Origin: Novosphingobium sp.
Lineage (GTDB): Bacteria; Pseudomonadota; Alphaproteobacteria; Sphingomonadales; Sphingomonadaceae
NCBI GenBank assembly: GCA_016719755.1
Contig: JADJYM010000012.1
Coordinates: forward strand, 553,688 to 617,687
Direction: 5' to 3'
Length of the DNA stretch: 64,000 nt
Part shown: piece after piece, positions 1,649-49,041 of the stretch
How the letters are laid out: each line of letters begins with the position of its first letter
Position numbering within the stretch: position 1 is the first letter of the stretch
Notes under the pieces: generated by a model
What the model saw: the letters and a program-made list of their open reading frames with translations, nothing else
Database searches by the model: none
What the model was told of the DNA's origin: nothing
Position numbers and translations under genes: made by a program

Positions 1649-1848
1649 CCTCGATCGCGGATACGACGTTGCGATTGGCGCAGCGTCATATCAGGCCTTT
1701 CCCGATTATCTTTGCGCGAGTTGCGTGCGTTTTGCGATCAGCCCAGGCTGGCACGCTTGCTTAGATCGGCCACTGGAAATGGCTCTGTCATTTCGCGAGG
1801 TCGCGTCCGTCAAGGTGGTGTAATTTCGGCTGTGGCCGTGGGCCATCG

Positions 1849-3062
1849 TCAGGCGGCTTTGGCGGTGATGTGTAGGGGCTGATTTTCCTCCTCGATCATG
1901 GGTTGGTTGAGTTCGGCCATGCCTTCGATCTGCATGTATCGGTGCTGGAGCTGCCACTCGTCGTTCTGCTCCATCAGCACAGCCCCGACGAGGCGGATGA
2001 TGCTGTCTTCGTTCGGGAAGATTCCGACGACGTCGGCGCGGCGCTTGACCTCCTTGTTGAGCCGCTCGAGCGGATTGGTTGAGTGTAACTTCGTGCGGTG
2101 CTGGGTGGGAAAGCCGGTGTAGGCGAGCACGTCGGTTTCGGCCTCGTCCATGCAGGCGCCGAGCTTGGGCCAACGGGTGCGCAACTGGTCGGCGACCTGT
2201 CGCCAGACCTGCGTTGCGCTTTTCTGATCGGGCTGCAGGAAGACCTGGCGGATCGCGGCGGCGACGACAGTGTTCTGGCCCTTGGGCACATAGGACAGGG
2301 CATTGCGCATGAAGTGCACCCGGCAGCGCTGCCAGGTGGCGCCCATGACGCGGGTGATCGCGCCCTTGAGGCCCTCGTGAGCATCGGAGATGACCAGCTT
2401 CACGCCGGTAAGACCGCGCCGAACAAGGTCCTTCAGGAAGTCGGACCAGAAGACCTCCGCTTCCGAGGGGCCGATATGCAGGCCGACGATCTCGCGCCGG
2501 CCCTCGGTGTTGACGGCCATGGCGATTATTGCGGCAACGCTGATGATCCGCCCGCCTTCGCGTACCTTGAGATAGGTGGCATCGAGCCAGAGATACGGCC
2601 ATTCGCCGGTGAGCGGGCGTTTCAGAAAGGCATGGACGCGCTCGTCAATGTCCTTGCAAAGCTTGGAGACGGTGGACTTGGAGATGCCGGTCATGCCCAT
2701 GGCCTGGACGAGTTCATCGACCCGCCGGGTGCTGACCCCGCCGATCCACGCTTCCTGGATCACCGCAACCAGCGCTTTCTCGACCATCTTGCGGGGCTCA
2801 AGGAAGCCCGGAAAGTAGGACCCAGCACGCAGCTTGGGGATTTTCAGGTTCAGCGTGCCTACCCGGGTATCCAGCGAACGGTCGCGATAGCCGTTGCGCC
2901 AGGTCGCGCGCTCGCTGCTGCGTTCGTGGCGACCCGCGCCGATCAGGCCATCAACGTCGGCCTCCATGATCAGCTGCAGCACGTTCTCGGCGATGGTGCG
3001 CAAAAATCCGGTTGGCCGCCCTTCGCAGCAAGCTCTTCGATCAGTAATCTGTCCTCGGTCAT
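1849..3062 (-). pseudogene. IS256-family transposase, frameshifted (copy 1)
   Basis: Mutator-type DDE transposase, about 404 residues when whole (compare copy 2). The start is ATG at 3062 with a GAGGAG ribosome site. After residues GGQPDF the frame is lost because one base of an A-run near 3002-3006 is missing (5 A here, 6 in copy 2). The rest, from LRTIAENVLQL to HITAKAA, is open. Catalytic context is present: [16 protein letters not shown] and the late NPLERLNKE. Since the only lesion is a homopolymer indel, this may be a sequencing artefact. Confidence 0.85.
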
Positions 3063-3140
3063 CGGGAACTCCTCTTCGTCACGGTTGAAGTGTGCAAACT
3101 CCACCATAACGATGAACCCGGTGGCCACCAGCGACGCCGC

Positions 3141-3172
3141 ATTCCGGGGTGGGGCATGCCCCACCCCGGAAT
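3141..3172. repeat. 32-bp perfect palindrome inside IS256
   Basis: attccggggtggggca and its exact reverse complement abut. The palindrome sits between the terminal repeat and the transposase start in all four copies (3141, 13014, 17665, 40552; copy 4 has one extra C). It would fold into a very strong hairpin in the transposase leader, possibly limiting transposase expression from outside transcription. Confidence 0.8.
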
Positions 3173-3233
3173 ACACCATCGCCTACACCGGAAATTACAC
3201 CACGAGCGCGGACGCTAACTTTCGCGAGCCTGG

Positions 3234-3827
3234 CTAAGACCTTGCGAAAGCAAGCAGCGGCTCGATCTCGCCACCATCCGCTGCCCTCAGCGCCGCGACA
3301 TAAGCTCTTCTGGTTTCACCCGGATCGACCAGATTGGCCCTGCCCCAAGTGAAGCGGGGCTGGCCCATCTCCGTTGCGAGCAGGTCAGCGACCAGGCGGG
3401 AGTGCCGACGATTGCCGTTGGGGAATGGGTGTATGGACACCAGCCGGGGGGAGAAGCGGATCGCAATCTCGTCCGGGGGGTAGGTGGCGTTGTCTACCCA
3501 GTACCGCGCATCGTGGACGAGCTCTCGTACCGCCATGGGAATGCGGTAGGCGTCGATGCCGATATTGCGCGGAGTCTTGCGATACTGGCCTGCCCACTTC
3601 CAGACTTCGCCGAACATCCGTTTGTGCAGATCCCGCAGGAATGCATCGTAGAGCACGTCAACATTGCGCGCGCGCCGGAGCCAGAGGCTGGCCCGGGTGA
3701 TGTTGATCTGCTCGGCTTCGTTCAGTTCGGCTCTGGTGGTGATGTAGGTCGGAATAAGCTGTTCGCGTTCTTCCGCTTCGAGCGGCGTATTGGCTTCGTC
3801 TTCACCGTCGTAGAGAGGATCGGTCAT
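3234..3827 (-). CDS. Mobile mystery protein B, Fic/DOC-domain protein
   Basis: A 197-residue Fic-fold protein of the 'mobile mystery protein B' type. Fic enzymes usually transfer AMP to a hydroxyl group of a target protein. The active-site loop reads HPFPNGNRRHSR; the canonical motif is HPFx(D/E)GNGRxxR, so the acidic residue that binds metal is Asn here. The upstream segment FGEVWKWAGQYRKTPRNIGI matches the conserved WaGxyR..niGi region. The ATG overlaps the stop of the upstream regulator gene by 4 bases, so the two are translationally coupled. The pair resembles a toxin-antitoxin or addiction module of mobile elements, which is family knowledge and not shown here. IS256 copy 1 is inserted 7 bp after the stop codon. 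Confidence 0.85.
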   Translation of the reverse strand: MTDPLYDGEDEANTPLEAEEREQLIPTYITTRAELNEAEQINITRASLWLRRARNVDVLYDAFLRDLHKRMFGEVWKWAGQYRKTPRNIGIDAYRIPMAVRELVHDARYWVDNATYPPDEIAIRFSPRLVSIHPFPNGNRRHSRLVADLLATEMGQPRFTWGRANLVDPGETRRAYVAALRAADGGEIEPLLAFARS

Positions 3828-4291
3828 TCATCCTCCCACAGGTAGCGCAGCGGCTCATTCAGGATCTCGGCAGTCAGACGCGCAAGTTCCTCCTGCATCT
3901 GCCCAGTGGTTAGAGACTGGTTCTCCAGCATCATGCCCTGTGCAACGGGACCGAACTGATCGAGAGCTTTGGCTGCCGCGCGGTCGCGCACGATCTCGTC
4001 GAGCGGTGCCTTGGGCACGAGCGCGTAAACAAGCTGGCAGTTGAGCGCCTCGGCAGCCTCTCGCAGGGATTTGAGGGTAGTGGCGTCGGTTGCCTCCGCC
4101 TTTTCCAGCGCGATAATACGCGACTGCACCACGCCCATGCGCTTGGCGAGCTGGCGCGATGTCATGCCCAGCGAATCGCGGATAGCGCGTATCCAGCCCC
4201 CGTGCGGACGCGGGAGGCTTTGTTCCCGCAGAAAGGCGAGCTTCCTGTCGAGGTTTTTTCGAGCCAGTTCGGCTTGCCGATCCTTGATCAT
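3824..4291 (-). CDS. Mobile mystery protein A, XRE-type HTH regulator
   Basis: A DNA-binding protein of about 155 residues. An N-terminal segment LARKNLDRKLAF precedes a helix-turn-helix (WIRAIRDSLGMTSRQLAKRM, VQSRIIALEKAEA), the layout of mobile mystery protein A. I chose ATG 4291 (MIKDRQ) because GGAGG lies six bases upstream. An ATG 18 bases further up (4309) is also open but overlaps the operator-like palindrome. It sits directly upstream of the Fic gene with a 4-base overlap. It probably represses its own operon through the AT-rich inverted repeats at 4308-4385. Confidence 0.82.
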   Translation of the reverse strand: MIKDRQAELARKNLDRKLAFLREQSLPRPHGGWIRAIRDSLGMTSRQLAKRMGVVQSRIIALEKAEATDATTLKSLREAAEALNCQLVYALVPKAPLDEIVRDRAAAKALDQFGPVAQGMMLENQSLTTGQMQEELARLTAEILNEPLRYLWEDE

Positions 4292-4307
4292 CGCAGTCCT
4301 CCGCTGC

Positions 4308-4396
4308 ATTTATGATCATAAATAAGTGATTTTGTCAAAGGGTAAAGATCATTAATAAATGGTCATATGACACCATTATGATCACTTTTATGTGAT
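4308..4396. promoter_or_regulatory. Operator/promoter region of the mobile mystery A/B operon
   Basis: An AT-rich island in GC-rich surroundings. It holds a perfect 16-bp palindrome atttatgatcataaat (4308-4323) just upstream of the HTH gene start. Related half-sites follow (gatcattaataaatggtc, then ttatgatcactttta up to about 4390). Repeated atgatca cores suggest several regulator dimers bind here. Promoter elements probably overlap, but no single -35/-10 pair stands out. Confidence 0.6.
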
Positions 4397-4467: not shown

Positions 4468-6588
4468 CTACGCGGTAATCCTCAATTCAGATCCGATTTC
4501 AATGACATCGGCATCATCTGGAACCTCGAGCTGCATTTCGTCGATCCAGCTCGAAACCCAGTCTCGTCTCGCTTGAGACCAAGCATCGAATATCGGTAGC
4601 TTCCGATAGATCGCGCGAGTTCGAATGATCTCATCGACAATGGCGCGGACGATCGCAGGGACTCGATGACGGTTCAGCTCCGCCCTGACGAGCCCTTCGT
4701 CGGCGCTGAGGCTAGCAATGATCGATCTGCCATAACCTGGTTGCTCCAACTGATCTTCAAAAGCTCCGATCAGCGTGGCCAAAATATCTTGCAGCCCTGT
4801 GGTGACGAAGGGGGCAGAAATGACGACTTGGTCGTTTATCTGCCGGTTATGCCACGCCAAAAGGAATTGGCTGACCGAACGAAAGATATCGAGAAAATTT
4901 GCCAGCCCGCCCAGATTTCCTCGATCGACATGCCGCTCAAGGCGCGTACGGATATGTCGCTGGACGAACTCCCAGATAGCTTCGCGCAATTCGGCGACCG
5001 ACGCGCCGCTTGACCCAATAGCCCAATGTTCGGGAACGTCGCCCGAAAAAGGATCGCGCGCTCGCCAGCGCCCAAAACCTCCACTGCCCGAAATGGCACC
5101 GTCGTGGAACCGAATGTTTGTCCGGTTGATGAAATCGATCGCCTCGTCGATTCCGCCAAGAGCATCGACGTATTCAATAAGGCCGTCGCCACTTTCGATC
5201 ACTCTCTGCAGCCTATTAGCTGCGGCGGATCCTCCTCCACGATCGCGCAGCAACCGTGGCAGTTGCTTTACGGAACAAAGCTGACTCTTCACTTCGCAAC
5301 CGTAAAGCATGGCACGAAGCTGACCCACTGCCGGCTGGTCGAACTTGGCTTGGTCATCGTCCTTCAGTGCCAGGACGAAATCAGCCTTCTCCACGCCGAG
5401 GTTCCAGGAGAGAGTTGGCAGCGTGTCACCACGTTTGAATATTCGCAATGAAAGGTCAGTCGCGTCTGCGGGTATCGCTGATGTTGCCAGAAGCTGACCT
5501 TCTTCGGTCAGGACAAGCGATTGCAGCTTCAACCCGTGAGGCTCCTGGACCGGAGGGGCGGGTTCAGCAATCGCCACCGACATGAATCTTTCGGGTTCAA
5601 TCTTCGCAAACTTCAGGTCGTCTTGCTTCAACGCCCCGGCTGCGTTCTGTTTGGTCGCGAACCAGAGACATGCCTCGCTATTGCCGCCAGAAAGAGCGGC
5701 ATTGGACATGTTCGCGCTCCCGGCGAGCCAATAAGTGGATTCTGGTGTTTGGAAGGCGAGTGCCTTTGCGTGCATCTTTCGCCCAGCCTTTTTCGATGTG
5801 GCCGAAATCAGTTCCAGATCTCCAATCGAATCGCGCAGCTCCACAAACCTCTCTACCGGTAAATTGCTATAACCGGACTGGCTGACGATCTGGATGGTTG
5901 CTGTGGGGAAAAGCGCCCTTATCCGCTCAACCATACGAAGGTTGCTGTCGAAAAATGGGGCGAGCATCACGACCTTGCGAACATCTGTGTTACTCATGCG
6001 CGCGACTATCTGTGGCCAGAGCGGACCATCGTGACTGGAGAGCAGTTCGATGTCCTGCGTGCTGACATCGGCATCGCCTAGCCAAGAAAAGGCGTTCTCG
6101 AGCCGATCGAATATATCCTTCTTCAGCCACTTCGACACCGGCCCCGCTTCTTGGGCGTAGCGCTGGAATTGACGAAATATCGAAGCGATCAGGGGGGCAT
6201 TTGCGTTTCGATCGTCGCCGCTCGACGACTCCAGCGTCGAGATCAACTCGAAGTTATGTCCTGTTCCGGCAGATGTGCAGTTATTGCTGCCAACCGACGC
6301 AATCACCTTTTCCTCGCCGATCGAAAGGTACAATTTCGGATGGAACACTCCGCCAGTTCTACTGATAGGAATAACGAAGTAGTTCCGATCGAAACCTTGC
6401 CCCTGCTTGTTGTTTTCGAGGATGTCCCGGTAGCGGTCATTGTCGATGAAAACGATCACCGTAGCGCCATCGAACGCCGGAGTGGGGAGTATGCGCCGCT
6501 CGAAAAAGTGCGAATCAAAATCATATGTAGCAACGAACGCAAACTTACCCCTGATCTTCTTCAAGAACTCAAGGAAATCGACGGTCAC
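4468..6588 (-). CDS. Phospholipase-D-like (HKD) protein, candidate defence effector
   Basis: About 706 residues. Two PLD/HKD-type motifs are visible: H83-x-K85 in VFHPKLYLSIGEE with GSNN at 100-103, and H273-x-K275 in GRKMHAKALAF with GSANMS at 290-295. Paired HxK...GSxN motifs form one active site in PLD-superfamily nucleases and lipid hydrolases. The C-terminal ~400 residues match nothing I recognise. I prefer GTG 6588: it overlaps the upstream stop as GTGA and has GGAGG about ten bases before it. A longer ATG form (6645) would overlap the upstream gene by 61 bases. It forms an operon with the 587-residue protein. PLD nucleases occur in several phage-defence systems (for example DISARM drmC), so a defence role is plausible but inferred. 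Confidence 0.75.
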   Translation of the reverse strand: MTVDFLEFLKKIRGKFAFVATYDFDSHFFERRILPTPAFDGATVIVFIDNDRYRDILENNKQGQGFDRNYFVIPISRTGGVFHPKLYLSIGEEKVIASVGSNNCTSAGTGHNFELISTLESSSGDDRNANAPLIASIFRQFQRYAQEAGPVSKWLKKDIFDRLENAFSWLGDADVSTQDIELLSSHDGPLWPQIVARMSNTDVRKVVMLAPFFDSNLRMVERIRALFPTATIQIVSQSGYSNLPVERFVELRDSIGDLELISATSKKAGRKMHAKALAFQTPESTYWLAGSANMSNAALSGGNSEACLWFATKQNAAGALKQDDLKFAKIEPERFMSVAIAEPAPPVQEPHGLKLQSLVLTEEGQLLATSAIPADATDLSLRIFKRGDTLPTLSWNLGVEKADFVLALKDDDQAKFDQPAVGQLRAMLYGCEVKSQLCSVKQLPRLLRDRGGGSAAANRLQRVIESGDGLIEYVDALGGIDEAIDFINRTNIRFHDGAISGSGGFGRWRARDPFSGDVPEHWAIGSSGASVAELREAIWEFVQRHIRTRLERHVDRGNLGGLANFLDIFRSVSQFLLAWHNRQINDQVVISAPFVTTGLQDILATLIGAFEDQLEQPGYGRSIIASLSADEGLVRAELNRHRVPAIVRAIVDEIIRTRAIYRKLPIFDAWSQARRDWVSSWIDEMQLEVPDDADVIEIGSELRITA

Positions 6589-8348
6589 GAAACTACGTCC
6601 TCCAGAAGGAAGTTGAGCATTTCCTGGCCATCCGGCGTCAGGCATTGACCTTTTTCCGGATCGCGGTCGATCAGCCGCAAGTCTCTCAAAACCTGCATCG
6701 CGCTTGGGAATCGGGGGTTTCCGGAATCCACATCGTCACGGGTGAGCCCCGTCCCCACGACCATCGGGCCATCAACTCGGAATAGCGGGGGACTTCCGCC
6801 AAACCCCTTTTCGTAACTCATTGTTTCGTGCTGACGCACCACAAATCGGCTTACAACCCGATACAAAATTTCCCGGTTTGGCGTGTTCCACCAGTCTTCG
6901 AAATCCAAAGCGAGCATGCGCGCGACCGTTGGCATGGCGACGTCAGCACTTGGATCGAATACCTTCTGGGCGTTCCATCCTTTATGAGCATCGGCAACGG
7001 TCAGATCGTATCGAAGCATCAGGCAGTATAGCAACATAGCGGCGACCGCCGCGCCCGCGGACCCAGAAACCAAGTCCTGCTCGATAAGCGCGTCACGGAG
7101 AAATCGTTCGACGAACGGATTTGATGCGAAAATCTCGGATGAACCAGCAACGCCGCTTGTCTGACCGGGAACGTCAATCGCCAGCAATGCCAAGGAAGCG
7201 GCCGGGGTAAGATCCAAGAACGGGACGGGAAACTCTACGCCGAATAGCTCGCCGAGCACTTCGGCTGCTTCGACATTGTCAAACGCCTCAATTACGTCTG
7301 CGACAGCCCTACCGGCTGGGTAATTCAGGATCGCACGAACAAAGCTGGCCAGCAGCGATTCTAGGGCGATTGTCAGATAGTTATGGAACTGGAAAATGCG
7401 CCAGCGCTCAGATATATCGATCAGCGAAGGCAGCAATTCCACCGACACGGCCTCGTCTTCCTCGTCGAAGATCATCCGATAGTATGCCAAGTCGCCGAAC
7501 GATCGCTCGTCGAGTTCCACACCTGCATCAGCTGTGACCAAAGTCGCCCATAAAAGGAGCAGCAGGCTCATGCGTCGCCGATAATGGGAATTAAGCTGGG
7601 AGTCGCTATCGGTCGAGAAAAACAGATCGCGCAATGGTAAAAGGTCGAACTCCTCTGCCGCTCGCAATTCACACAGCCCTGCCGAGGCGCCGAATTCCTC
7701 GAGCACATCCAGATCCATCGATCCGCCTTCTGGCCCCATTTTAACAAATTCTGTTCCCGCAACCGCTTGACCGAAGGCGGTGGCTAATTCGCGCCCCTTG
7801 GCGGACAATTCGCCAGAGGTCAGGTTGTTGGATTGGCCGTTTTCGTCCTCATCGTCGGCTGTATCAGGGCTCGCGCTCTCCGCGAAAATGCCAAGATTGA
7901 TCAGGGACCCCTTGTACGCAGCGAACCCACTGGCGTTGTCGCGCAGATGGCTCCATTGGCCAAGATCAATCGAGCGCTTACTTGAATTCGCCGCAAGATC
8001 GACCGCTCGATTGGAACCCTGCAGAGACCCACCTTCACACGGATTGCCGTTGTGATGAAGGACCGCACCCAGCGTCATTGCCCTTTCGTCAATCAAGACA
8101 AACCGCATAAGCTGGTCGAAGTCGCCCTTGCCCCTCGTTCGATCTTGGGCGCGCTGGAATGCCCATGGGAAAAAAGAATAATAACGGGCGCGCGGCGTGA
8201 TCGAGGTAATGCAATGTAACAATTCAGCGCCTAGGCGTGCACCAACCCGAAGCGTCATGCCCAGCGGATCACCGGTACCCGATGACGGCAGCTCGCTGTT
8301 CCAATTGAGCAACGCGACACCGGTTGGAAGGCGCTTGAGATTTAGCAA
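6585..8348 (-). CDS. Unrecognised 587-residue protein, partner of the PLD-like gene
   Basis: A long open frame, acidic in the middle (stretch EDENGQ around residue 165), with no family I can name and no clear Walker, HTH or membrane segment. The N-terminal part reads ITSITPRARYYSFFPWAFQ. The start is TTG at 8348 with a GGGGG run five bases before it; no in-frame ATG lies upstream. The stop overlaps the GTG of the PLD-like gene (GTGA), which implies coupled translation and a shared task. It may supply recognition or regulation for the nuclease. Codon use looks like the rest of the accessory region. Confidence concerns its being a real gene, not its function. Confidence 0.75.
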   Translation of the reverse strand: MLNLKRLPTGVALLNWNSELPSSGTGDPLGMTLRVGARLGAELLHCITSITPRARYYSFFPWAFQRAQDRTRGKGDFDQLMRFVLIDERAMTLGAVLHHNGNPCEGGSLQGSNRAVDLAANSSKRSIDLGQWSHLRDNASGFAAYKGSLINLGIFAESASPDTADDEDENGQSNNLTSGELSAKGRELATAFGQAVAGTEFVKMGPEGGSMDLDVLEEFGASAGLCELRAAEEFDLLPLRDLFFSTDSDSQLNSHYRRRMSLLLLLWATLVTADAGVELDERSFGDLAYYRMIFDEEDEAVSVELLPSLIDISERWRIFQFHNYLTIALESLLASFVRAILNYPAGRAVADVIEAFDNVEAAEVLGELFGVEFPVPFLDLTPAASLALLAIDVPGQTSGVAGSSEIFASNPFVERFLRDALIEQDLVSGSAGAAVAAMLLYCLMLRYDLTVADAHKGWNAQKVFDPSADVAMPTVARMLALDFEDWWNTPNREILYRVVSRFVVRQHETMSYEKGFGGSPPLFRVDGPMVVGTGLTRDDVDSGNPRFPSAMQVLRDLRLIDRDPEKGQCLTPDGQEMLNFLLEDVVS

Positions 8349-8621: not shown

Positions 8622-9824
8622 TCAATTGTTGGCCTGGCCTCGCTTTAGCTGATCAAGGTAATCGGCCCACCATTGCGCCATCTCGACGCGTTCGGCCCAA
8701 TGCGCACCGCGATGGTAAGCTGCCCGAACGGCATCCTTATCCTTGTGAGCCAATGCCCTTTCGATGGCATCGGGAGACCACTTGCCCGACTCGTTGAGCA
8801 AGGTGCTGGCCATGGCCCGGAAGCCATGGGCAGTCATTTCGTCACCGGCATAGCCAAGCCGCCGCAGCGCTGCGTTGACCGTGTTCTCGGACATCGGTGA
8901 TTTCGGCGTCCTGATCGACGGGAAAACATACTTCCCGCCGCCGGTGAAAGCCTTCGCCTCCTTCAGCACAGCGATAGCCTGCCTGGACAAGGGAACTGCG
9001 TGTTCGAGGCGGGTCTTCATCTTTGCGGGAGGGATGCGCCACACCGCATCGTCGAGATCGATCTCCCGCCATTCCGCGTGACGCAGTTCGCCTGGCCGGA
9101 CAAATACCAGCGGCGAGAACAGGAGCGCATACTTGGTTGTCGGATACCCCTCATAGCCATCGATCGCGCGCAGCAGTTCGCCGACGCGCCGGGAATCGAG
9201 GATCGCGGCGAAATGCTTTGGTTTGCGACTGGCGAGCGCGCCGCGCAGATCACGGGTCGGATCGACCTTGGCTAACTGGTTGGCGACCGCGAACCGGAAC
9301 ACCTGTCCAGCGAACTGGAGCGTCCGGTGAGCCTTCTCGTCGTTCTTGGACGCTTCATAAGGCCGGACAGCCTCCAGAACCTCTACCGGCTCGATCTCGA
9401 CAATCGGACGGTTGCCCAGCTTCTTTTGCAGCAGGCTCAGAAACCACTCGCGCTTGCGGACCGTCGCTGCCGCCAGCCCATCCCGCCGGTTCTTCTCAAT
9501 GTAAGCTTTGGCGACCGCGCTGAAGGTGTTCAGTGCGCTGATCTTGGCAGCAATCTTGTCGCGGCGTTTCTGATCAGCCGGATCGATACCTTTGGCCAGG
9601 CTCCCCCTGGCCGTATCGCGGGCATCGCGAGCGTCACGGAGCTTCAATTCAGGATAGGACCCCAAGGCAAGCTTCTTCTCGACCCCGGCGCCATTGCGGA
9701 ATTTCATTCGCCAAAGCCGTCCGCCCGAGGGGGTCACGAGCAGATAAAGGCCCTTCTCGTCGGCAACCTTGTAAGCCTTGGCTTTGGGTTTGAGGGCGCG
9801 GATCGCAGTCTCTGTCAGAGCCAT
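8622..9824 (-). CDS. int: P4-type tyrosine integrase (DUF4102 N-terminus)
   Basis: About 400 residues. Site-specific recombinase that integrates islands, typically at tRNA 3' ends. The N-terminus MALTETAIRALKPKAKAY is the DUF4102 arm-binding domain. The catalytic domain shows the first arginine in FVRPGELRHAEWREI, the HGFR box (MTAHGFRAMASTLLN) and the nucleophile tyrosine in RAAYHRGAHWAER. I placed the start at ATG 9824; a longer frame upstream lacks family similarity. A fragment of a tRNA-Thr 3' end lies about 165 bp upstream (9990-10006), where an attachment site is expected, so this integrase probably belongs to the island extending to the left. Confidence 0.92.
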   Translation of the reverse strand: MALTETAIRALKPKAKAYKVADEKGLYLLVTPSGGRLWRMKFRNGAGVEKKLALGSYPELKLRDARDARDTARGSLAKGIDPADQKRRDKIAAKISALNTFSAVAKAYIEKNRRDGLAAATVRKREWFLSLLQKKLGNRPIVEIEPVEVLEAVRPYEASKNDEKAHRTLQFAGQVFRFAVANQLAKVDPTRDLRGALASRKPKHFAAILDSRRVGELLRAIDGYEGYPTTKYALLFSPLVFVRPGELRHAEWREIDLDDAVWRIPPAKMKTRLEHAVPLSRQAIAVLKEAKAFTGGGKYVFPSIRTPKSPMSENTVNAALRRLGYAGDEMTAHGFRAMASTLLNESGKWSPDAIERALAHKDKDAVRAAYHRGAHWAERVEMAQWWADYLDQLKRGQANN

Positions 9825-9963
9825 TTGGGGGCCTTTCGAATTTGGGGTTGGCGAAGGCCCCCACAAAAGGCCCCCAAATCGTCGCGGCTGCAGGCGAATT
9901 TCAGCGAACCTTGGCGGCCAAGCCAAGGCAATTTATCGCAGATTTCCGGGGTTTTAGCAACCT

Positions 9964-11430: not shown

Positions 11431-11670
11431 CCCACCAATTTCAAATGATTTGGGGAGAGGAACCTGCGCGACCTCTTGGGTGCGAGAATCTGCGGTTTTT
11501 GGACAGCCGGTGACAAAACGGTTTTGGAAGGGGGGGAACGGTAGGTGGTCCCATTGGCCAAAAAATCATTTCCCTGCCTACGCGGGTATCATGTGGCAGA
11601 GGATGGATTGCTCATGATGGCCTGATGGGGCTAAGTTAGCTCTGATGACTGTGGACGAACTTCACGCGCG

Positions 11671-13092
11671 GGTCGCGTCCGTCAAGGTGGTGTAATTTCG
11701 GCTGTGGCCGTGGGCCATCGTCAGGCGGCTTTGGCGGTGATGTGTAGGGGCTGATTTTCCTCCTCGATCATGGGTTGGTTGAGTTCGGCCATGCCTTCGA
11801 TCTGCATGTATCGGTGCTGGAGCTGCCACTCGTCGTTCTGCTCCATCAGCACAGCCCCGACGAGGCGGATGATGCTGTCTTCGTTCGGGAAGATTCCGAC
11901 GACGTCGGCGCGGCGCTTGACCTCCTTGTTGAGCCGCTCGAGCGGATTGGTTGAGTGTAACTTCGTGCGGTGCTGGGTGGGAAAGCCGGTGTAGGCGAGC
12001 ACGTCGGTTTCGGCCTCGTCCATGCAGGCGCCGAGCTTGGGCCAACGGGTGCGCAACTGGTCGGCGACCTGTCGCCAGACCTGCGTTGCGCTTTTCTGAT
12101 CGGGCTGCAGGAAGACCTGGCGGATCGCGGCGGCGACGACAGTGTTCTGGCCCTTGGGCACATAGGACAGGGCATTGCGCATGAAGTGCACCCGGCAGCG
12201 CTGCCAGGTGGCGCCCATGACGCGGGTGATCGCGCCCTTGAGGCCCTCGTGAGCATCGGAGATGACCAGCTTCACGCCGGTAAGACCGCGCCGAACAAGG
12301 TCCTTCAGGAAGTCGGACCAGAAGACCTCCGCTTCCGAGGGGCCGATATGCAGGCCGACGATCTCGCGCCGGCCCTCGGTGTTGACGGCCATGGCGATTA
12401 TTGCGGCAACGCTGATGATCCGCCCGCCTTCGCGTACCTTGAGATAGGTGGCATCGAGCCAGAGATACGGCCATTCGCCGGTGAGCGGGCGTTTCAGAAA
12501 GGCATGGACGCGCTCGTCAATGTCCTTGCAAAGCTTGGAGACGGTGGACTTGGAGATGCCGGTCATGCCCATGGCCTGGACGAGTTCATCGACCCGCCGG
12601 GTGCTGACCCCGCCGATCCACGCTTCCTGGATCACCGCAACCAGCGCTTTCTCGACCATCTTGCGGGGCTCAAGGAAGCCCGGAAAGTAGGACCCAGCAC
12701 GCAGCTTGGGGATTTTCAGGTTCAGCGTGCCTACCCGGGTATCCAGCGAACGGTCGCGATAGCCGTTGCGCCAGGTCGCGCGCTCGCTGCTGCGTTCGTG
12801 GCGACCCGCGCCGATCAGGCCATCAACGTCGGCCTCCATGATCAGCTGCAGCACGTTCTCGGCGATGGTGCGCAAAAAATCCGGTTGGCCGCCCTTCGCA
12901 GCAAGCTCTTCGATCAGTAATCTGTCCTCGGTCATCGGGAACTCCTCTTCGTCACGGTTGAAGTGTGCAAACTCCACCATAACGATGAACCCGGTGGCCA
13001 CCAGCGACGCCGCATTCCGGGGTGGGGCATGCCCCACCCCGGAATACACCATCGCCTACACCGGAAATTACACCACGAGCGCGGACGCTAAC
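11671..13092 (-). mobile_element. IS256-family insertion sequence, copy 2 (intact)
   Basis: A 1422-bp copy with the same termini as copy 1. Flanks carry tcacgcgc at 11662-11669 and 13093-13100, an 8-bp duplication, with one additional G between duplication and left end. It contains an uninterrupted transposase and is the reference for the other copies. Confidence 0.9.
11721..12935 (-). CDS. IS256-family (Mutator-type) transposase, intact
   Basis: 404 residues from ATG 12935, preceded by GAGGAG. DDE transposase that moves the element by cut/copy with 8-9 bp target duplication. Catalytic-core landmarks are [30 protein letters not shown] and [15 protein letters not shown], with a [10 protein letters not shown] segment between, as in this family. 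The frame is also open upstream through the palindromic leader, but the family start and ribosome site favour 12935. This is the only copy in the window with no frameshift. Confidence 0.92.
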   Translation of the reverse strand: MTEDRLLIEELAAKGGQPDFLRTIAENVLQLIMEADVDGLIGAGRHERSSERATWRNGYRDRSLDTRVGTLNLKIPKLRAGSYFPGFLEPRKMVEKALVAVIQEAWIGGVSTRRVDELVQAMGMTGISKSTVSKLCKDIDERVHAFLKRPLTGEWPYLWLDATYLKVREGGRIISVAAIIAMAVNTEGRREIVGLHIGPSEAEVFWSDFLKDLVRRGLTGVKLVISDAHEGLKGAITRVMGATWQRCRVHFMRNALSYVPKGQNTVVAAAIRQVFLQPDQKSATQVWRQVADQLRTRWPKLGACMDEAETDVLAYTGFPTQHRTKLHSTNPLERLNKEVKRRADVVGIFPNEDSIIRLVGAVLMEQNDEWQLQHRYMQIEGMAELNQPMIEEENQPLHITAKAA

Positions 13093-13137
13093 TCACGCGC
13101 TGCTGACTGAATGCAGTTGCCACGATAGTCACAACAC

Positions 13138-14691
13138 ATGCCAAAGCGAAGCATCACTGACGACGAGATCGCGCTCATAAAAGCGATGTCTGCGCGGGGC
13201 ATGAAGAATAAAGACATTCAGTTCTATTTCAACCGACCTGACCGAGCCGTGAACAGTGGTCGTATCACCGGCATCCGCGAAGGTAGCTACGGGCCTTCCA
13301 AAGACATCGCCCCCGCATCCGAGGAGCAGGTTGACGCCCTATTAGCGGCCCAAAGCCAGACAGAGCCTCTATCAGCGGTCATTATTCCGAGCCTGCAAGG
13401 TCATAATGATACTAACCCGTTGAGCGCAGATACGATCAAGACACTATTCGACAATGACGGGGACGGGGTTTGGCGCTTTGCAGTGGGTGAGACCGACGCG
13501 CACGAATGCAAAGCCAATTTTGGCTTAAAGCACACGAGCGGTTGGCTTCGCGCCATTGCGGCCCTCGCCAACAATAACGGCGGCTACATCTTTTTCGGCG
13601 TCCATGACAAAGGCGCTGTAGGCGAGGGTGGCGAGGACCTGAGCTACGCCGTCGTCGGCATGAAGTCAGACGAGTTCGCAAAAATGGACCCTGCCGAGGT
13701 GACGAAGCGCGTAAAGTCGGTCTTCGACCCGACACCCCGCGTGCAGACATCCTTACTCTCCATAGGGGGTGCCAGCGTAGGTGTTATCCATGTGGAGCAA
13801 CACCAAAGCCGCCCTGTTATCGCAACCAAGACCGAGGGCAATGACGTTCGAGAGGGCGATATTTACTTCCGCTATCCCGGCCAGTCAGCCCGCATCAAAT
13901 ACAGCGATTTGCGAGCGTTGCTCGATGCTCGCGATCACGATGCGCGCGCGCAGATATTGCCTATGGTCGAGCGCCTTCTTCAGCTTGGGCCGCAACGGAC
14001 GATGATTGCCGATCTCATGCAAGGGACTCTTGCAGATGGAGTGCGCTCAATCCAACTGGATGAGGCGCTCGTGGAAAAGCTGACCTTCATTAAGGAGGGA
14101 GAGTTCTCAGAAACAGCAGGCGCTCCAACTTTGCGTTTAATCGGCGATGTAGAGCCATTTAACCAAGCTGGACCTGTGAAGACCAAGCTTGGCCTGCTGA
14201 CCCGAGCCAAGGTCATTGCGGCCTTCCTCGATCAGTCTGCGCCCGATGATCCGGAGCAATACATCCGCTTTGCCATTGAGGTAGGCCAAGGCGAGTGGTT
14301 CCCTCTGCACTATTTCGCGAAGCTGGCCGGGATGTCACAAGTGCAACTTGTGGATTTCATCAATGCGTCTGAAGGCACAAATCACCGAAAGGCTATCTAC
14401 TCCGCGCGGGTCCAGCCAAATGCTGCATTCAAGCCCGCAGTCGGCAAACCCAAGGCTCTCCTTGAATTGTTGATTGCCGGATCGCCCATCGCATTGGCAG
14501 ACGCTCAGAAGGCGAGCCATGCCGCTCAAGCAATCACTGCTTTGCCCAATGGTTTCGAGGTAAACGGGGATGAGATGATGGGGCTCTTGAAGCAATGTCT
14601 CACCTTGCTTGAGGGAAAAACCACCCTAAGCTTCGCGAGGCGCGCCGTCTGTCGTGTTGACGAATTGCTCTTTGCTGACGATCTGACTTAG
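13138..14691 (+). CDS. AlbA_2 (Schlafen-like) domain DNA-binding protein
   Basis: 517 residues. The N-terminal ~45 residues (ITDDEIALIKAMSARG, KNKDIQFYF) look like a small helix-turn-helix. At about 115-260 lies an AlbA_2-type domain: ETDAHECKANFG, then WLRAIAALANNNGGYIFFGV, matching the conserved E.K......l.r.i.AfaN..GG.l..Gv pattern. The rest is unassigned. AlbA_2 proteins bind nucleic acid and occur in regulators and in Schlafen-like putative defence proteins. The ATG has no clear ribosome site. It stands alone beside IS256 copy 2 and converges with the gene at 14717. Confidence 0.75.
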   Translation: MPKRSITDDEIALIKAMSARGMKNKDIQFYFNRPDRAVNSGRITGIREGSYGPSKDIAPASEEQVDALLAAQSQTEPLSAVIIPSLQGHNDTNPLSADTIKTLFDNDGDGVWRFAVGETDAHECKANFGLKHTSGWLRAIAALANNNGGYIFFGVHDKGAVGEGGEDLSYAVVGMKSDEFAKMDPAEVTKRVKSVFDPTPRVQTSLLSIGGASVGVIHVEQHQSRPVIATKTEGNDVREGDIYFRYPGQSARIKYSDLRALLDARDHDARAQILPMVERLLQLGPQRTMIADLMQGTLADGVRSIQLDEALVEKLTFIKEGEFSETAGAPTLRLIGDVEPFNQAGPVKTKLGLLTRAKVIAAFLDQSAPDDPEQYIRFAIEVGQGEWFPLHYFAKLAGMSQVQLVDFINASEGTNHRKAIYSARVQPNAAFKPAVGKPKALLELLIAGSPIALADAQKASHAAQAITALPNGFEVNGDEMMGLLKQCLTLLEGKTTLSFARRAVCRVDELLFADDLT

Positions 14692-17617: not shown

Positions 17618-19038
17618 GTTAGCGTCCGCGCTCGTGGTGTAATTTCCGGTGTAGGCGATGGTGTATTCCGGGGTGGGGCATGCCCCACCCCGGAATGCGG
17701 CGTCGCTGGTGGCCACCGGGTTCATCGTTATGGTGGAGTTTGCACACTTCAACCGTGACGAAGAGGAGTTCCCGATGACCGAGGACAGATTACTGATCGA
17801 AGAGCTTGCTGCGAAGGGCGGCCAACCGGATTTTTGCGCACCATCGCCGAGAACGTGCTGCAGCTGATCATGGAGGCCGACGTTGATGGCCTGATCGGCG
17901 CGGGTCGCCACGAACGCAGCAGCGAGCGCGCGACCTGGCGCAACGGCTATCGCGACCGTTCGCTGGATACCCGGGTAGGCACGCTGAACCTGAAAATCCC
18001 CAAGCTGCGTGCTGGGTCCTACTTTCCGGGCTTCCTTGAGCCCCGCAAGATGGTCGAGAAAGCGCTGGTTGCGGTGATCCAGGAAGCGTGGATCGGCGGG
18101 GTCAGCACCCGGCGGGTCGATGAACTCGTCCAGGCCATGGGCATGACCGGCATCTCCAAGTCCACCGTCTCCAAGCTTTGCAAGGACATTGACGAGCGCG
18201 TCCATGCCTTTCTGAAACGCCCGCTCACCGGCGAATGGCCGTATCTCTGGCTCGATGCCACCTATCTCAAGGTACGCGAAGGCGGGCGGATCATCAGCGT
18301 TGCCGCAATAATCGCCATGGCCGTCAACACCGAGGGCCGGCGCGAGATCGTCGGCCTGCATATCGGCCCTCGGAAGCGGAGGTCTTCTGGTCCGACTTCC
18401 TGAAGGACCTTGTTCGGCGCGGTCTTACCGGCGTGAAGCTGGTCATCTCCGATGCTCACGAGGGCCTCAAGGGCGCGATCACCCGCGTCATGGGCGCCAC
18501 CTGGCAGCGCTGCCGGGTGCACTTCATGCGCAATGCCCTGTCCTATGTGCCCAAGGGCCAGAACACCGTCGTCGCCGCCGCGATCCGCCAGGTCTTCCTG
18601 CAGCCCGATCAGAAAAAGCGCAACGCAGGTCTGGCGACAGGTCGCCGACCAGTTGCGCACCCGTTGGCCCAAGCTCGGCGCCTGCATGGACGAGGCCGAA
18701 ACCGACGTGCTCGCCTACACCGGCTTTCCCACCCAGCACCGCACGAAGTTACACTCAACCAATCCGCTCGAGCGGCTCAACAAGGAGGTCAAGCGCCGCG
18801 CCGACGTCGTCGGAATCTTCCCGAACGAAGACAGCATCATCCGCCTCGTCGGGGCTGTGCTGATGGAGCAGAACGACGAGTGGCAGCTCCAGCACCGATA
18901 CATGCAGATCGAAGGCATGGCCGAACTCAACCAACCCATGATCGAGGAGGAAAATCAGCCCCTACACATCACCGCCAAAGCCGCCTGACGATGGCCCACG
19001 GCCACAGCCGAAATTACACCACCTTGACGGACGCGACC
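17618..19038 (+). mobile_element. IS256-family insertion sequence, copy 3
   Basis: A 1421-bp copy in the opposite orientation to copies 1 and 2. The flanking octamers (acatcttg left, gaaatcga right) do not match. A target duplication is absent, which points to a deletion or recombination between IS copies after insertion. The left flank is the IS21 istA gene; the right flank is unrelated. Confidence 0.9.
17775..18988 (+). pseudogene. IS256-family transposase, three frameshifts (copy 3)
   Basis: Same protein as copy 2, but with a T missing in the run near 17832, a C missing near 18368 and an A too many near 18614. All three are homopolymer indels. Start ATG 17775 with the usual GAGGAG; stop at 18986-18988. 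Non-functional as written, or mis-sequenced. Confidence 0.88.
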
Positions 19039-40244: not shown

Positions 40245-40504
40245 GACAAATCCTTTGTGCAGGGAGACGAACCGAACCCGGCGGGCACGGCTGAACAGGC
40301 GGCTGATTGCTTGCGATGGATCAGTGCTCACGCCCCCACACTGTCAGGAGCGGCTACCGGCTGGACCTTCGCTACCCCTATGTTCCTCTCGGGGCGCGGC
40401 CAAAGCCGGATGTTGGAAACCTGGCATACACACAGGCGCATGCGCCTTTACCGGCGAACCGGCTGGACATGCGCGCATGCCACCCGGCCTTCAGCTTGTG
40501 CTGT

Positions 40505-41931
40505 GTTAGCGTCCGCGCTCGTGGTGTAATTTCCGGTGTAGGCGATGGTGTATTCCGGGGTGGGGCATGCCCCCACCCCGGAATGCGGCGTCGCTGGTGG
40601 CCACCAGGTTCATCGTTATGGTGGAGTTTGCACACTTCAACCGTGACGAAGAGGAGTTCCCGATGACCGAGGACAGATTACTGATCGAAGAGCTTGCTGC
40701 GAAGGGCGGCCAACCGGATTTTTTGCGCACCATCGCCGAGAACGTGCTGCAGCTGATCATGGAGGCCGACGTTGATGGCCTGATCGGCGCGGGTCGCCAC
40801 GAACGCAGCAGCGAGCGCGCGACCTGGCGCAACGGCTATCGCGACCGTTCGCTGGATACCCGGGTAGGCACGCTGAACCTGAAAAATCCCCAAGCTGCGT
40901 GCTGGGTCCTACTTTCCGGGCTTCCTTGAGCCCCGCAAGATGGTCGAGAAAGCGCTGGTTGCGGTGATCCAGGAAGCGTGGATCGGCGGGGTCAGCACCC
41001 GGCGGGTCGATGAACTCGTCCAGGCCATGGGCATGACCGGCATCTCCAAGTCCACCGTCTCCAAGCTTTGCAAGGACATTGACGAGCGCGTCCATGCCTT
41101 TCTGAAACGCCCGCTCACCGGCGAATGGCCGTATCTCTGGCTCGATGCCACCTATCTCCAAGGTACGCGAAGGCGGGCGGATCATCAGCGTTGCCGCAAT
41201 AATCGCCATGGCCGTCAACACCGAGGGCCGGCGCGAGATCGTCGGCCTGCATATCGGCCCCTCGGAAGCGGAGGTCTTCTGGTCCGACTTCCTGAAGGAC
41301 CTTGTTCGGCGCGGTCTTACCGGCGTGAAGCTGGTCATCTCCGATGCTCACGAGGGCCTACAGGGCGCGATCACCCGCGTCATGGGCGCCACCTGGCAGC
41401 GCTGCCGGGTGCACTTCATGCGCAATGCCCTGTCCTATGTGCCCAAGGGCCAGAACACTGTCGTCGCCGCCGCGATCCGCCAGGTCTTCCTGCAGCCCGA
41501 TCAGAAAAGCGCAACGCAGGTCTGGCGACAGGTCGCCGACCAGTTGCGCACCCGTTGGCCCAAGCTCGGCGCCTGCATGGACGAGGCCGAAACCGACGTG
41601 CTCGCCTACACCGGCTTTCCCACCCAGCACCGCACGAAGTTACACTCAACCAATCCGCTCGAGCGGCTCAACAAGGAGGTCAAGCGCCGCGCCGACGTCG
41701 TCGGAATCTTCCCGAACGAAGACAGCATCATCCGCCTCGTCGGGGCTGTGCTGATGGAGCAGAACGACGAGTGGCAGCTCCAGCACCGATACATGCAGAT
41801 CGAAGGCATGGCCGAACTCAACCAACCCATGATCGAGGAGGGAAAATCAGCCCCCTACACATCACCGCCAAAGCCGCCTGACGATGGCCCACGGCCACAG
41901 CCGAAATTACACCACCTTGACGGACGCGACC
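40505..41931 (+). mobile_element. IS256-family insertion sequence, copy 4
   Basis: 1427 bp, flanked by an exact 8-bp duplication tgtgctgt (40497-40504 and 41932-41939), so it inserted intact upstream of the CRISPR-Cas locus. This duplication fixes the element ends as gttagcgtcc and ggtcgcgtcc (opposite strands). Confidence 0.93.
40663..41881 (+). pseudogene. IS256-family transposase, four frameshifts (copy 4)
   Basis: Same protein as copy 2, with one extra base at each of four homopolymers: A near 40885, C near 41159, G near 41843 and C near 41856. The palindrome upstream also has one extra C. All are insertions in runs, which is the pattern of a base-calling error in one stretch of assembly. 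Confidence 0.88.
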
Positions 41932-42299: not shown

Positions 42300-45200
42300 A
42301 TGCAGGACGGGCGGCTCTGGCGCTTAGGTTTCGACCTTGGTTCAAATTCTCTCGGCTGGGCTGCACTTTCCCTGACGGACGAGGGTCGCCCTTCAGGCTT
42401 GATCGACATGAGCGTCCGCATTTTCCCAGACGGACGCGACCCACAGGATCAGCAATCCAACGCAGCAAAGAGGCGCATGCCGCGTGGAGCGCGCCGCAAC
42501 AGGGATCGCTATTTGCAGCGCCGCGCCAAATTCCTGCGGATGTTGACCGATTACGGGTTGATGTCAGCCGAGTCTGAGCGGCGATCCGAGCTTGAAGCGA
42601 TCGATCCCTGGATATTGCGCGCACGCGGGTTGGAGGAACCGCTCGCGCTGCATGAGTTCGGTCGCGCCCTGTTCCACTTGCAGCAACGTCGCGGCTTTCA
42701 ATCCAATCGGCTGACCGACAAGGGCGACGATGACAAGGGCAAGGTCAGCAAAGGTGCAGAGCAGGCGAGGCTGGCGATGGGGCACAGCGGTGCCGAGACC
42801 TTGGGGCAACTCAAGGGACAGCCGAGATTGGAGAATCTTCGCAGTCCAGTTGGGCAGCGAAAAGCCATGCCGCTCGCCCGTGTGCGATCGCATGGTGAAG
42901 GTGCGAAGCTGGCCTATGACTACTATCCTCTGCGCGAGATGATTGCAGACGAATTCGACCTGCTTTGGGGTACTCAGGCACGGCACCATCCAGAACTGAC
43001 AGACACAGCGAGAAAGGCTTTGCGCGAGGCCCTTTTGTTTCAGCGCCCGCTGAAGCCTCAGCCTGTTGGCCGATGCACACTGGAATCGGACGAGGAACGC
43101 GCCCCGAACGCACTTCCCTCTGTGCAACGGCTGCGCATCTATCAGGAGCTGAACAACCTTCGTGTCGCCAAGCGACCGGGCGAGCCGCGCCTGCCATTGT
43201 CGCCAAGTGAACGGGATATTCTGGCCGTAAGACTGGAAACGTCTGCCAAACTCTCGCTCAAACAAATCCGCACGCTGCTTGGGTTAAGTGATGCCGCCAG
43301 CTTCAGTATCGAGGAAGGCGGTCGTGACTACCTGGATGGCAACAAGACACATGACAGCATGTGCGGAACGGCAAAGAACAAGGCGGGTTGGAAAGGCTGG
43401 GCCGACTTGCCCCGACGAGGGCAAAGTGCTCTGATCGAGATTCTGCTGGGCCGTCCCTCGCCGGTCAAGGGCAGCACACAGGCAGTAAGCAACACGCACC
43501 GGCAAATCATTGATCGCGTATCTGCGGCGCTGGCGGTTGACGAAGGAATCGCACAATCGCTGATCGAAGCCAAAGATCAAAACGCAATCACCGACTTTCT
43601 GTGCGAACGCTACAACCTCGAGGAAGATGCAGCGGGTCGTATCGCCACCATCCGCTTGCCCGATGGACATGGCCGGTTAGGCCGAACGGCGGGGGGCAAG
43701 GTGTTACCTCACCTGATCGCACCCGATGAAGAGGGAGAGCTTCGCACGTTTGACAAGGCAGTTGTTGCGGCTGGCTATCTGTCCCATTCGCTCCGTGGGA
43801 CAGGAGAAGTCCACGACACAGCGGACGGGCTTCCTTACTACGGCGTAGTGCTTGAGAAGTCAGTTGCTTTTGGCTCCGGCAACCCTGCCGATTCCGAAGA
43901 GAAGCGCATTGGCAAGGTCGCCAATCCATCGGTCCACGTTGCGCTCAACCAGCTGCGTCACGTCTACAATGCGCTGGCCGCAAGGCTTGGCCCGCCCGCA
44001 CAAATCGTTATCGAATTGGCTCGCGACCTTCCCCTGTCTGCCAAAGGCAAAGCGGAGCTGGAGAAGACGCAAAAAGACAATCGCGCCGCGAACGAAAAGC
44101 GCAGCAAGGAGTTGGAGGCATTCGGCGTTCCCAACACCTATGAAAACCGGATGCGCCTCCGTCTTTGGGAAGACCTGGATGCCACGGGGAAGCGTTGCCC
44201 CTACTCTGGGAATCAGATCAGCAGTGCCGTGCTGTTTTCCAGTGAGATCGAAATCGACCACATCCTGCCCTTCTCGCGGACTCTTGACGATGGCTTCGGC
44301 AACAAGATTCTGGCTTTTCGGGAGCGCAACCGCGCCAAGGGGCATCGATCGCCATGGGAAGCGGTAGAGGCCGGAGCGTTCGACCGTGCAGTGATCGAAG
44401 CTTCCATGCGCGATCTGCCCAAGAGCAAGGCATGGCGTTTCGGTCCCGATGCGATGGAGCGTTTCGAAAATCAGGAACGTGGCTTCCTTGACCGACAACT
44501 CAATGACACGCGCTACATATCACGGCTCGCCAAGCAGTATCTCGATGCGACGGGCGCACAGACATGGGTGGTCAATGGCCGCCTTACTGCCGACCTGCGC
44601 CACGTCTGGGGCTTGAACGCTGTTCTCAGCACCCACAACAGCGCGCCACCGTCATCCGAAGCCGATGCGGTCAAGAAGAACCGCAACGATCATCGACACC
44701 ACGCGATCGACGCCTTTGTGGTGGCCTGCACTGATCGGTCGATGGTCAAGGCGGCATCGGATGCAGCAAAGGTGGTGGAGGACGAATTTGCCGCCGGTCG
44801 GCGCGAGTCAATGCGATTGCTTGAGAACGTGCCCGATCCGTTCGGCGGCTATTTGCAGGCGGTGCGGGAAGCGGCGGCGCGGATCGTCGTAAGCCACAAG
44901 CCCGATCACGGTATTCAGGGCGAGCTGCACGAGGGCACCAACTACGGCGTGGTCATGACACAAGATGGAAGCCAGCGGCTCGCCACGCGGAAGCCGATTA
45001 CAGGCCTGACGGCCAACGAGATCAAGAACATCGGCGATGATCGGATCAGGCGCGAACTGTTACCGCTGGTCGATTTAAGCGATGCAGAGCGCAAGGCGGC
45101 ATTGCTGAAATACTCTCAGGACACCGGGCATTTGCGTGTGCGCGTCCACAAGGTTCAGGCGACCTTTGAAACCATCCGCCACGGTCCCGACAGCAAGGGC

Positions 45201-45632: not shown

Positions 45633-45727
45633 GCCACCTTTAACCATAGTGTGCGATTTTTGCCCTCGTCTTTATTGAAGGCGAACAAAGATGCAGCAGC
45701 AGCATTTATCGAAATCCTAGCGATGCC

Positions 45728-46610: not shown

Positions 46611-46928
46611 GCGGATATCGTATCGTGTGGCTGATGGTCTTGTTCGACTTGCCGGTTATGACACCGGAAGAGCGCAGAGCTGCCAACGGATTTCGCAACT
46701 ATCTGCTCGATGAAGGTTTCCAAATGGCGCAATTCTCAGTATATTTGCGCTGCACCCCAAGCAAGGAAGCCGCCAGCGCGTATGTTCGCCGAATCGAATC
46801 AGCGGTCCCCTCGGACGGTAAGGTGGACATCCTTCAATTCACCGACAGGCAGTATGAAAACATCATCTGCTTCAGGGAAGGTGCGCGATGCCGCACCACC
46901 AAAACCAGCGCAACTGCTCCTTTTTTGA
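46598..46928 (+). CDS. cas2: Cas2, frameshifted near its C-terminus
   Basis: Start ATG 46598 (MRHLSGYRIVWLMVLFDLPV). Ferredoxin-like Cas2 fold, with FRNYLLDEGFQMAQFSVYLR and PSDGKVDILQFTDRQYENII. The expected ending is ...AAPPKPAQLLLF then TGA at 46926-46928, but one base is missing near 46889 (gcgcgatgcc), so the literal frame runs to 46981 with an unrelated tail. About 110 residues when whole. Works with Cas1 in spacer integration. Confidence 0.88.
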
Positions 46929-47000
46929 CCGGATTCGTTTCGGTTTCAGCGAAGAAAATGGCGCAGAAAGCATTTCCTTAGAAACACTTACTGCGCCTCC

Positions 47001-48965: not shown

Positions 48966-49041
48966 TGGTGCCGCTTACAGGATTCGAACCTGTGACCCCA
49001 TCATTACGAATGATGTGCTCTACCGACTGAGCTAAAGCGGC
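48966..49041 (-). tRNA. tRNA-Thr (anticodon CGT)
   Basis: 76 bases including encoded CCA. Acceptor gccgctt / aagcggc, D-arm with agctcagtcggtagagc, anticodon stem catcatt-CGT-aatgatg, T-arm acagg-ttcgaat-cctgt. Its 3' part is copied at 26031-26075 and, in shorter form, at 9990, 24110, 24237 and 25905, so this gene is an integration hot spot. Confidence 0.95.

What the first reader, a model, noticed from the sequence alone, without database searches (positions are those of the whole stretch)
4468..8348. Two-gene operon: PLD-like nuclease plus an unrecognised 587-residue protein
Two long, intact, translationally coupled genes (GTGA overlap) sit in a mobile region beside an HTH-Fic module and several integrases. 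One has both HxK motifs of the phospholipase-D superfamily in a 706-residue protein with a large unknown C-terminal part; the other matches nothing I know. Both stayed open while neighbouring mobile-element genes are broken, which suggests selection. This is the best candidate in the window for an undescribed defence or conflict system.
Basis: partly seen in the sequence, partly recalled or inferred. Interest (0 to 1): 0.72.

Follow-up and report, generated by a model that had tools for sequence, protein, structure and literature searches.

The report
Two-gene nuclease system related to Azaca
Two overlapping genes that nearly always travel together, in many bacteria and some archaea and often near DNA restriction genes, look like a DNA-cutting defence pair related to the known Azaca system but without its helicase.

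Summary
Two intact genes overlap by GTGA: A (587 aa, 6585-8348 -) and B (706 aa, 4468-6588 -).

B is a single-chain, two-lobed phospholipase-D-superfamily protein. Both HxK...N...E motifs are nearly invariant in 68 aligned B proteins; its model matches bacterial PLD and Tdp1; it matches PADLOC ZacB (3.9e-16).

A has no known fold. It is a remote relative of DUF6361/ZacA over about 100 N-terminal residues (profile E 2e-6) and ends in a probable winged helix.

The pairing is nearly obligate. Of 57 testable non-redundant A loci, 55 carry B next door; all 15 plasmid loci fetched from a B search carry A next door. Hosts span many bacterial phyla and haloarchaea.

Type I restriction-modification genes lie near 11 of 61 non-redundant loci, scattered over the tree; IIG/DISARM-like methylases and SNF2 genes also recur.

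Best reading: a two-component antiphage or anti-mobile-element nuclease system, an Azaca-like variant lacking helicase ZacC. Defence is likely but untested; DNA cutting is inferred from family.

Novelty: no NCBIfam model matches any of 59 A proteins, and of PADLOC models only ZacA matches more than one. New variant of a known kind.

The parts
6585..8348 (-). gene A: 587-aa protein, remote DUF6361/ZacA relative; mostly helical, TTG start
8163..8270 (-). A residues 27-62: conserved D-x-L-G ... R-x-R-Y-Y-x-F-x-P-W stretch, likened to DUF6361/ZacA
   Evidence: (D27, T51, R55, Y56, Y57, W62 invariant in 55 members); coordinates computed by hand from residue numbers
6588..6878 (-). A residues 491-587: C-terminal helix-strand-strand-helix-strand-strand-helix segment, probable winged helix
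   Evidence: secondary structure; non-significant matches to S19e and Sso10a; HTH_45 in 1 of 59 A proteins
6585..6588 (-). GTGA overlap of A stop and B start
4468..6588 (-). gene B: 706-aa two-lobed PLD-superfamily protein, ZacB relative
6247..6342 (-). B motif 1: H83, K85, S101, N103, E114
   Evidence: conservation counts; coordinates computed by hand
5674..5772 (-). B motif 2: H273, K275, S291, N293, E305
   Evidence: coordinates computed by hand

Best explanation
A and B form a two-component defence system against phages or other invading DNA. B is the effector: a PLD-superfamily nuclease whose two HxK...N...E motifs make one active site in a single chain, by analogy with Tdp1 and BfiI working without metal and through a phospho-histidine (recalled chemistry). 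A is its obligate partner, read from an overlapping gene, and most likely binds DNA or the infection cue (C-terminal winged helix) and holds or directs B through its conserved N-terminal domain. The pair is kin to ZacA-ZacB of the Azaca/ZacABC defence system but here stands without the ZacC helicase; elsewhere it lies near other translocases (HsdR, SNF2-type). Shown: homology, near-obligate pairing, motif conservation, purifying selection, enrichment near restriction-modification genes. Inferred: defence role, DNA as substrate, A as sensor or specificity subunit.
For: B: PLDc_2 E 6e-7; ZacB E 3.9e-16; in 68 aligned B proteins (65 pair members, 3 ZacB), of the ungapped rows H83 66 of 66, K85 65 of 66, N103 66 of 66, E114 63 of 66, H273 67 of 67, K275 67 of 67, N293 66 of 67, E305 67 of 67. 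AlphaFold model pLDDT 85.1, Foldseek to PLD (7e0m 1.7e-10) and Tdp1 (2.3e-10). A: profile match to three DUF6361/ZacA proteins E 2.1e-6. B vs ZacB profile E 5e-17 over both motifs. Pairing: B adjacent in 55 of 57 testable non-redundant A loci; A adjacent to B in 15 of 15 fetched B-seeded plasmid loci; A/B distance correlation r 0.92 over 65 pairs, largest of 2000 permutations 0.15. Context: type I R-M genes near 11 of 61 non-redundant loci; HsdM in 8 of 61 vs about 0.3 expected; methylase or HsdR/SNF2 gene in 17 of 32 loci of 20 kb or more; M-S-A-B-R order in a Myroides plasmid as annotated. The three DUF6361 loci found are ZacA-ZacB-helicase operons.
Against: No phage, nuclease or toxicity data exist for the pair here. 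The window copy has no R-M or helicase gene among the seven neighbour ORFs scanned, HsdM is absent from its genome, and only short generic helicase hits answer a ZacC search there. A restriction or helicase gene abuts the pair within 150 bp in only 5 of 67 pairs. 33 of 61 non-redundant loci have none of the recurring families I labelled as defence. Two testable A loci lack B (L069, L073). Five of 10 genomes with a B-profile match hold only a B-like PLD protein with no A in the short flank. 18 of 50 B proteins match NCBI's DISARM DrmC model, so the PLD part alone is not specific. PLD folds also act on lipids. A has no fold match, so its role is a guess.
Confidence: 0.6

Rival explanations
1. 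Accessory or guard module of restriction-modification systems: A-B watches a partner translocase or methylase (HsdR, SNF2, DrmMI-like) and fires when the partner is inhibited, as PrrC does beside EcoprrI (recalled).
For: M-S-A-B-R in Myroides; A-B between HsdM and HsdR family genes in L035, L041, L045; the type I label is scattered on the B tree, 10 changes, 9 forced by starred branches; R-M/helicase neighbours co-directional 35 of 43 vs 317 of 533 for other genes, Fisher P 0.005.
Against: Window genome has no HsdM; 15 of 32 loci of 20 kb or more have no such gene; only 5 of 67 pairs have one abutting.
Confidence: 0.2
2. Toxin-antitoxin-like addiction pair: A is the upstream antitoxin/repressor with a winged helix, B a toxic nuclease; kept for plasmid or island maintenance.
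For: Upstream partner with probable HTH, overlap, near-obligate pairing, presence on plasmids.
Against: Both proteins are far larger than usual toxin-antitoxin partners (general knowledge); enrichment near R-M genes; kinship to the Zac genes.
Confidence: 0.1
3. DNA end-repair pair: B acts like Tdp1 on protein-DNA adducts, A positions it.
For: Tdp1 is among the best fold matches.
Against: Patchy distribution (2 of 296 genomes of the order at E<=0.001, the window's own included), R-M neighbours, ZacB kinship.
Confidence: 0.05

Closest known systems
Azaca (PADLOC ZacABC; that the two names mean one system is recalled, the original paper is not held)
   Same: B matches ZacB; A shares an N-terminal stretch with ZacA/DUF6361; same A-then-B gene order
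   Different: No ZacC helicase; A is 587 aa vs about 390 and not hit by Pfam DUF6361; the profile match of B to ZacB covers only its first ~320 residues
DISARM (DrmC PLD protein)
   Same: 39 of 50 B proteins match one PADLOC DrmC model and 18 of 50 the NCBIfam one; representatives of two neighbour families are DrmMI- and DrmD/DpdE-like
   Different: No DrmA/DrmB among the seven window neighbours scanned; the matched DrmC model is 153 positions against 706 residues; B is tied to A
NgoFVII/BfiI-type PLD restriction endonucleases
   Same: HxK...N...E motifs (likeness recalled); RE_NgoFVII hit below its cut-off (18 vs 23.8 bits)
   Different: Two motifs in one chain; long C-terminal half; partner A; no methylase among the window neighbours scanned
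Tdp1 / bacterial PLD
   Same: Two-lobed single-chain fold with two HxK motifs
   Different: About 13% identity; extra C-terminal half; different gene context

Membership tests
Azaca / ZacABC | ZacB PLD protein | tested here: met
   E 3.9e-16 for B; 50 of 50 B proteins match
Azaca / ZacABC | ZacA / DUF6361 protein | tested here: inconclusive
   ZacA E 0.0027 for A, Pfam DUF6361 not hit; profile-profile E 2.1e-6, probability 89, 92 aligned columns; 23 of 59 A proteins match ZacA at E<=0.001, 1 of 59 DUF6361 at E<=0.01
Azaca / ZacABC | ZacC helicase in the operon | tested here: not met
   No helicase among the seven neighbour ORFs scanned by Pfam apart from generic ATPase hits to IstB; in the whole genome only two short hits in one 1038-aa frame, far from the window, E 5.7e-7, while the model also rings in 6 of 14 control genomes
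PLD superfamily | two HxK motifs forming a bilobed fold | tested here: met
DISARM | DrmA and DrmB genes adjacent | tested here: not met
   Pfam scan of seven neighbour ORFs between 3.2 and 16.3 kb shows neither; the rest of the genome was not searched for them
Type I restriction-modification accessory | hsdMSR partner present | tested here: not met
   no HsdM_N match in own genome; type I genes near 11 of 61 relatives
Antiphage system | reduces phage plating | not testable with these tools
   needs the bench
Metal-independent PLD nuclease | cuts nucleic acid | not testable with these tools
   only motifs and fold tested

The most novel reading that the evidence does not exclude
A-B is an unnamed, portable two-gene immune module found across bacteria and archaea that plugs into different DNA-modifying and translocating systems (type I R-M, IIG/DISARM-like, Azaca) as an alternative effector or guard, and also works alone; Azaca would be just one of its combinations.
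Probability: 0.3. Interest if true: 0.75.

Novelty: new variant of a known kind. Interest (0 to 1): 0.55.

Why it matters
In the 13 fetched plasmid loci whose record carries annotation there, A is named only 'hypothetical protein', and none of 59 A proteins matches an NCBIfam model at E<=0.001. If the pair is a defence system, a thinly but widely spread one is going unnamed. Its scattered placement near and inside restriction-modification operons makes it testable whether restriction systems carry back-up or guard effectors. It would also separate the core of Azaca (A and B) from its helicase.

Tried and rejected
Composite transposon: insertion-sequence copies at 1794-3220 and 11667-13093 flank the region, but by eye each seems to have its own short target duplication, so they look like separate insertions.

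Known fold for A: no PDB or viral fold match (best E 0.76 and 0.072).

Solved sequence relatives: the best is E 0.04 (7clg, a putative helicase) for the B profile; all others are E 0.26 or worse.

Phage-borne copies: no match for B in 50,697 phage records at E<=1e-5; 2 loci in viral contigs with the A alignment A3 as query.

The first genome-contig scan, with P0002 alone, found nothing; alignment A3 gave 68 loci. That scan used one peptide motif, so it is no census.

Fic pair as part of the system: rejected, it belongs to 'mobile mystery' A/B. SoFic lies beside some relatives but is another Fic family.

Literature: ZacABC gave 0 papers, DUF6361 0, ZacA/ZacB 2 unrelated ones. A search holding PDC-M27 as one of four terms listed 15 of 326 papers, none with PDC-M27. 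A search with Zac, PADLOC and PLD terms and one with R-M and PLD terms listed 4 papers each; I read passages of PMC12458937 and PMC13239085 and saw no account of this pair. Whole-word Azaca with defence terms gave 5 papers; I read passages of three. Payne 2024 (embedded defences) is known here only from a reference list and may already cover this pair.

Dropped rows: the tree used 52 of 61 non-redundant loci (both ORFs over 400 aa) plus 16 others, 68 rows; it is a quick tree, several long branches meet, and deep placement is unsure. Plasmid loci: of the 21 B hits other than the N. humi pair, 15 were fetched; H4, H12, H13, H18, H19 and H21 were not (H18 and H19 have the same hit position as the fetched H17). 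My defence label left out the UvrD family and all families seen in one locus.
Full report
OBSERVATION. The window holds A (587 aa, 6585-8348 -) and B (706 aa, 4468-6588 -), overlapping by GTGA. Upstream of A lies an integrase (8622-9926), downstream of B an HTH/Fic pair (3824-4309, 3234-3827) identified as mobile mystery proteins A and B. The closest relatives have nearly the same lengths and a 4-base overlap (L015 587 + 707 aa; N. humi 585 + 708 aa), and substitutions are mostly silent (dS is close to saturation, so the ratio is rough).

WHAT B IS. Pfam PLDc_2 at 6e-7; NgoFVII PLD domain below cut-off; PADLOC ZacB 3.9e-16, weaker PbeA and DrmC. In 68 aligned B proteins (65 pair members and 3 ZacB) the H, K, N and E of both motifs are nearly invariant, E114 least so with 63 of 66. 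The AlphaFold model (pLDDT 85.1, pTM 0.68) matches bacterial PLD and human Tdp1 with TM-scores of about 0.3 over the whole model and about 0.5 over the target, over roughly 400 columns, so it is a match to part of B; I take that part to be the N-terminal catalytic half. The C-terminal half has no assigned relative. That Tdp1 and BfiI use like HxK/N chemistry without metal is recalled.

WHAT A IS. No believable Pfam, NCBIfam or PHROGs family for the window protein; none of 59 A proteins matches NCBIfam, 1 of 59 matches DUF6361 and 1 of 59 HTH_45 in Pfam. Model pLDDT 84.8, pTM 0.87, mostly helical, no PDB or viral fold match; the only local matches of note, none significant, are to S19e and Sso10a at the C-terminus, which I know as winged-helix proteins. 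Profile comparison with three DUF6361 proteins gives E 2.1e-6, probability 89, over window residues 20-122, where D27, T51, R55, Y56, Y57 and W62 are invariant in 55 members. PADLOC ZacA matches 23 of 59 members at E<=0.001, not the window's own (E 0.0027).

PAIRING. A scan of genome contigs with a five-member A alignment gave 68 loci, and viral contigs gave 2. Collapsed at 90% identity the 70 make 61. Six of the 61 show no B. Four of these (L043, L044, L050, L075) stop at the contig edge, leaving 57 testable, of which 55 have B adjacent; L069 and L073 lack it and have a shortened A ORF of 368-369 aa. From the other side, tblastn with B found 22 plasmid records; the N. humi record is the known pair, and I fetched 15 of the other 21. 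All 15 have A adjacent, 14 as A-B and one (L115) as B-A. With a distant A as query, 13 of 14 plasmid records are also in the B list at adjoining positions, and the fourteenth is an 86-residue piece. In a B-profile search of 299 Pseudomonadota genomes 10 had a match at E<=1e-5: the window's own pair, two more A-B pairs (G369, G895), two ZacAB (G039, G477), and five genomes with a B-like PLD protein and no A in the short flank held; G039 also holds a second such PLD protein. So not every PLD relative has A. A and B distances correlate at r 0.92 over 65 pairs, and 0.52 for the 1559 comparisons with A identity below 35%.

DISTRIBUTION. Record titles point to Pseudomonadota, Acidobacteriota, Chloroflexota, Thermodesulfobacteriota, Myxococcota, Nitrospirota, Elusimicrobiota and Bacteroidota (the Nitrospirota locus is cut before B); plasmids add Streptomyces, Halorussus and Halobaculum. 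It is rare in any one sample: 2 of 296 genomes of the order at E<=0.001, the window's own included, and 3 of 385 of the class, likewise.

CONTEXT. Recurrent neighbour families were identified from one representative each as HsdR, HsdM, DrmMI-like/Eco57I methylase, DrmD/DpdE-like SNF2, MmeI, Mrr, UvrD and SoFic. The HsdS label was put on two families by eye. 28 of 61 non-redundant loci hold at least one family that I labelled as defence (UvrD not counted); 11 of 61 hold type I R-M genes; 8 hold HsdM, against 0.31 expected from 137 HsdM_N matches in 120 Pseudomonadota genomes (my sum of the table; mean size assumed 3.8 Mb; found by BLAST cluster here and by Pfam there; Poisson 1.6e-9, ignoring kinship). 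Of 32 loci of at least 20 kb, 17 have a methylase or an HsdR/SNF2 gene. These genes are co-directional with the pair in 35 of 43 cases, other genes in 317 of 533 (Fisher P 0.005). Only 5 of 67 pairs have such a gene abutting within 150 bp. On the B tree the type I label (12 of 68 rows) needs 10 changes, 9 forced by starred branches; the shuffled mean is 11.2 and 92 of 500 shuffles are as low, so the association is scattered and not one clade's habit; changes may be gains or losses. The window's clade (window, L015, L002, L016, L017; support 100) has two members with type I genes nearby. The window genome has no HsdM.

ZAC/AZACA. ZacA searches found 3 of 249 genomes, each with ZacA, a B-like gene and a 1,044-1,129-aa gene of one family, of which one was checked and is ZacC at E 0. 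DUF6361 found the same three in 299. That ZacABC is the Azaca system of Millman 2022 is recalled; a table in PMC10952713 (passages) lists a PLD-like domain in Azaca with mechanism N/A, and PMC12926258 and PMC10482375 (passages) call its mechanism unknown. Because the helicase test failed and the ZacA test is inconclusive, I do not file the pair as Azaca; it may well work like it.

VERDICT. A real, selected, nearly obligate pair. I put defence at about 0.75 and the full mechanism (B nuclease on nucleic acid, A as its sensor or specificity partner) at about 0.6.

Noticed in passing
window 42300-48566: A 1110-aa Cas9-like ORF and a Cas1-like ORF (by eye, not scanned) followed by an array of 24 repeats at 65-66 nt spacing: a type II CRISPR-Cas locus in the same low-GC region.
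   Followed up: partly
window ~2000-49000: GC is 0.55-0.64 between about 2 and 50 kb and 0.65-0.71 beyond 50 kb; tRNA-Thr and tRNA-Cys lie at 48966-49131: probably a composite genomic island.
   Followed up: no
window 1794-3220, 11667-13093, 17618-19038, 40502-41931: Four copies of one insertion sequence (IS256-like by eye), the others 99.4-99.9% identical to the one at 11667.
   Followed up: partly
window 13138-14691: 517-aa protein with a Schlafen AlbA_2 domain, another possible conflict gene.
   Followed up: no
L070 / L013: The pair sits between a Tn7-like gene set (TnsA/B/C/TniQ by eye) and Mrr and MmeI genes in Kiloniella: likely transposon cargo.
   Followed up: partly
L024, L028: A Fic-family gene lies just upstream of A in both; the L028 protein matches SoFic at 1.2e-124.
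   Followed up: no
L104, L107, L111: Annotated SNF2 or DEAD helicase upstream of A (next gene in L111, with one or two genes between in L107 and L104), as though the helicase partner is exchangeable.
   Followed up: partly
L115 4989-8857: Gene order reversed (B then A), unlike the other pairs seen.
   Followed up: no
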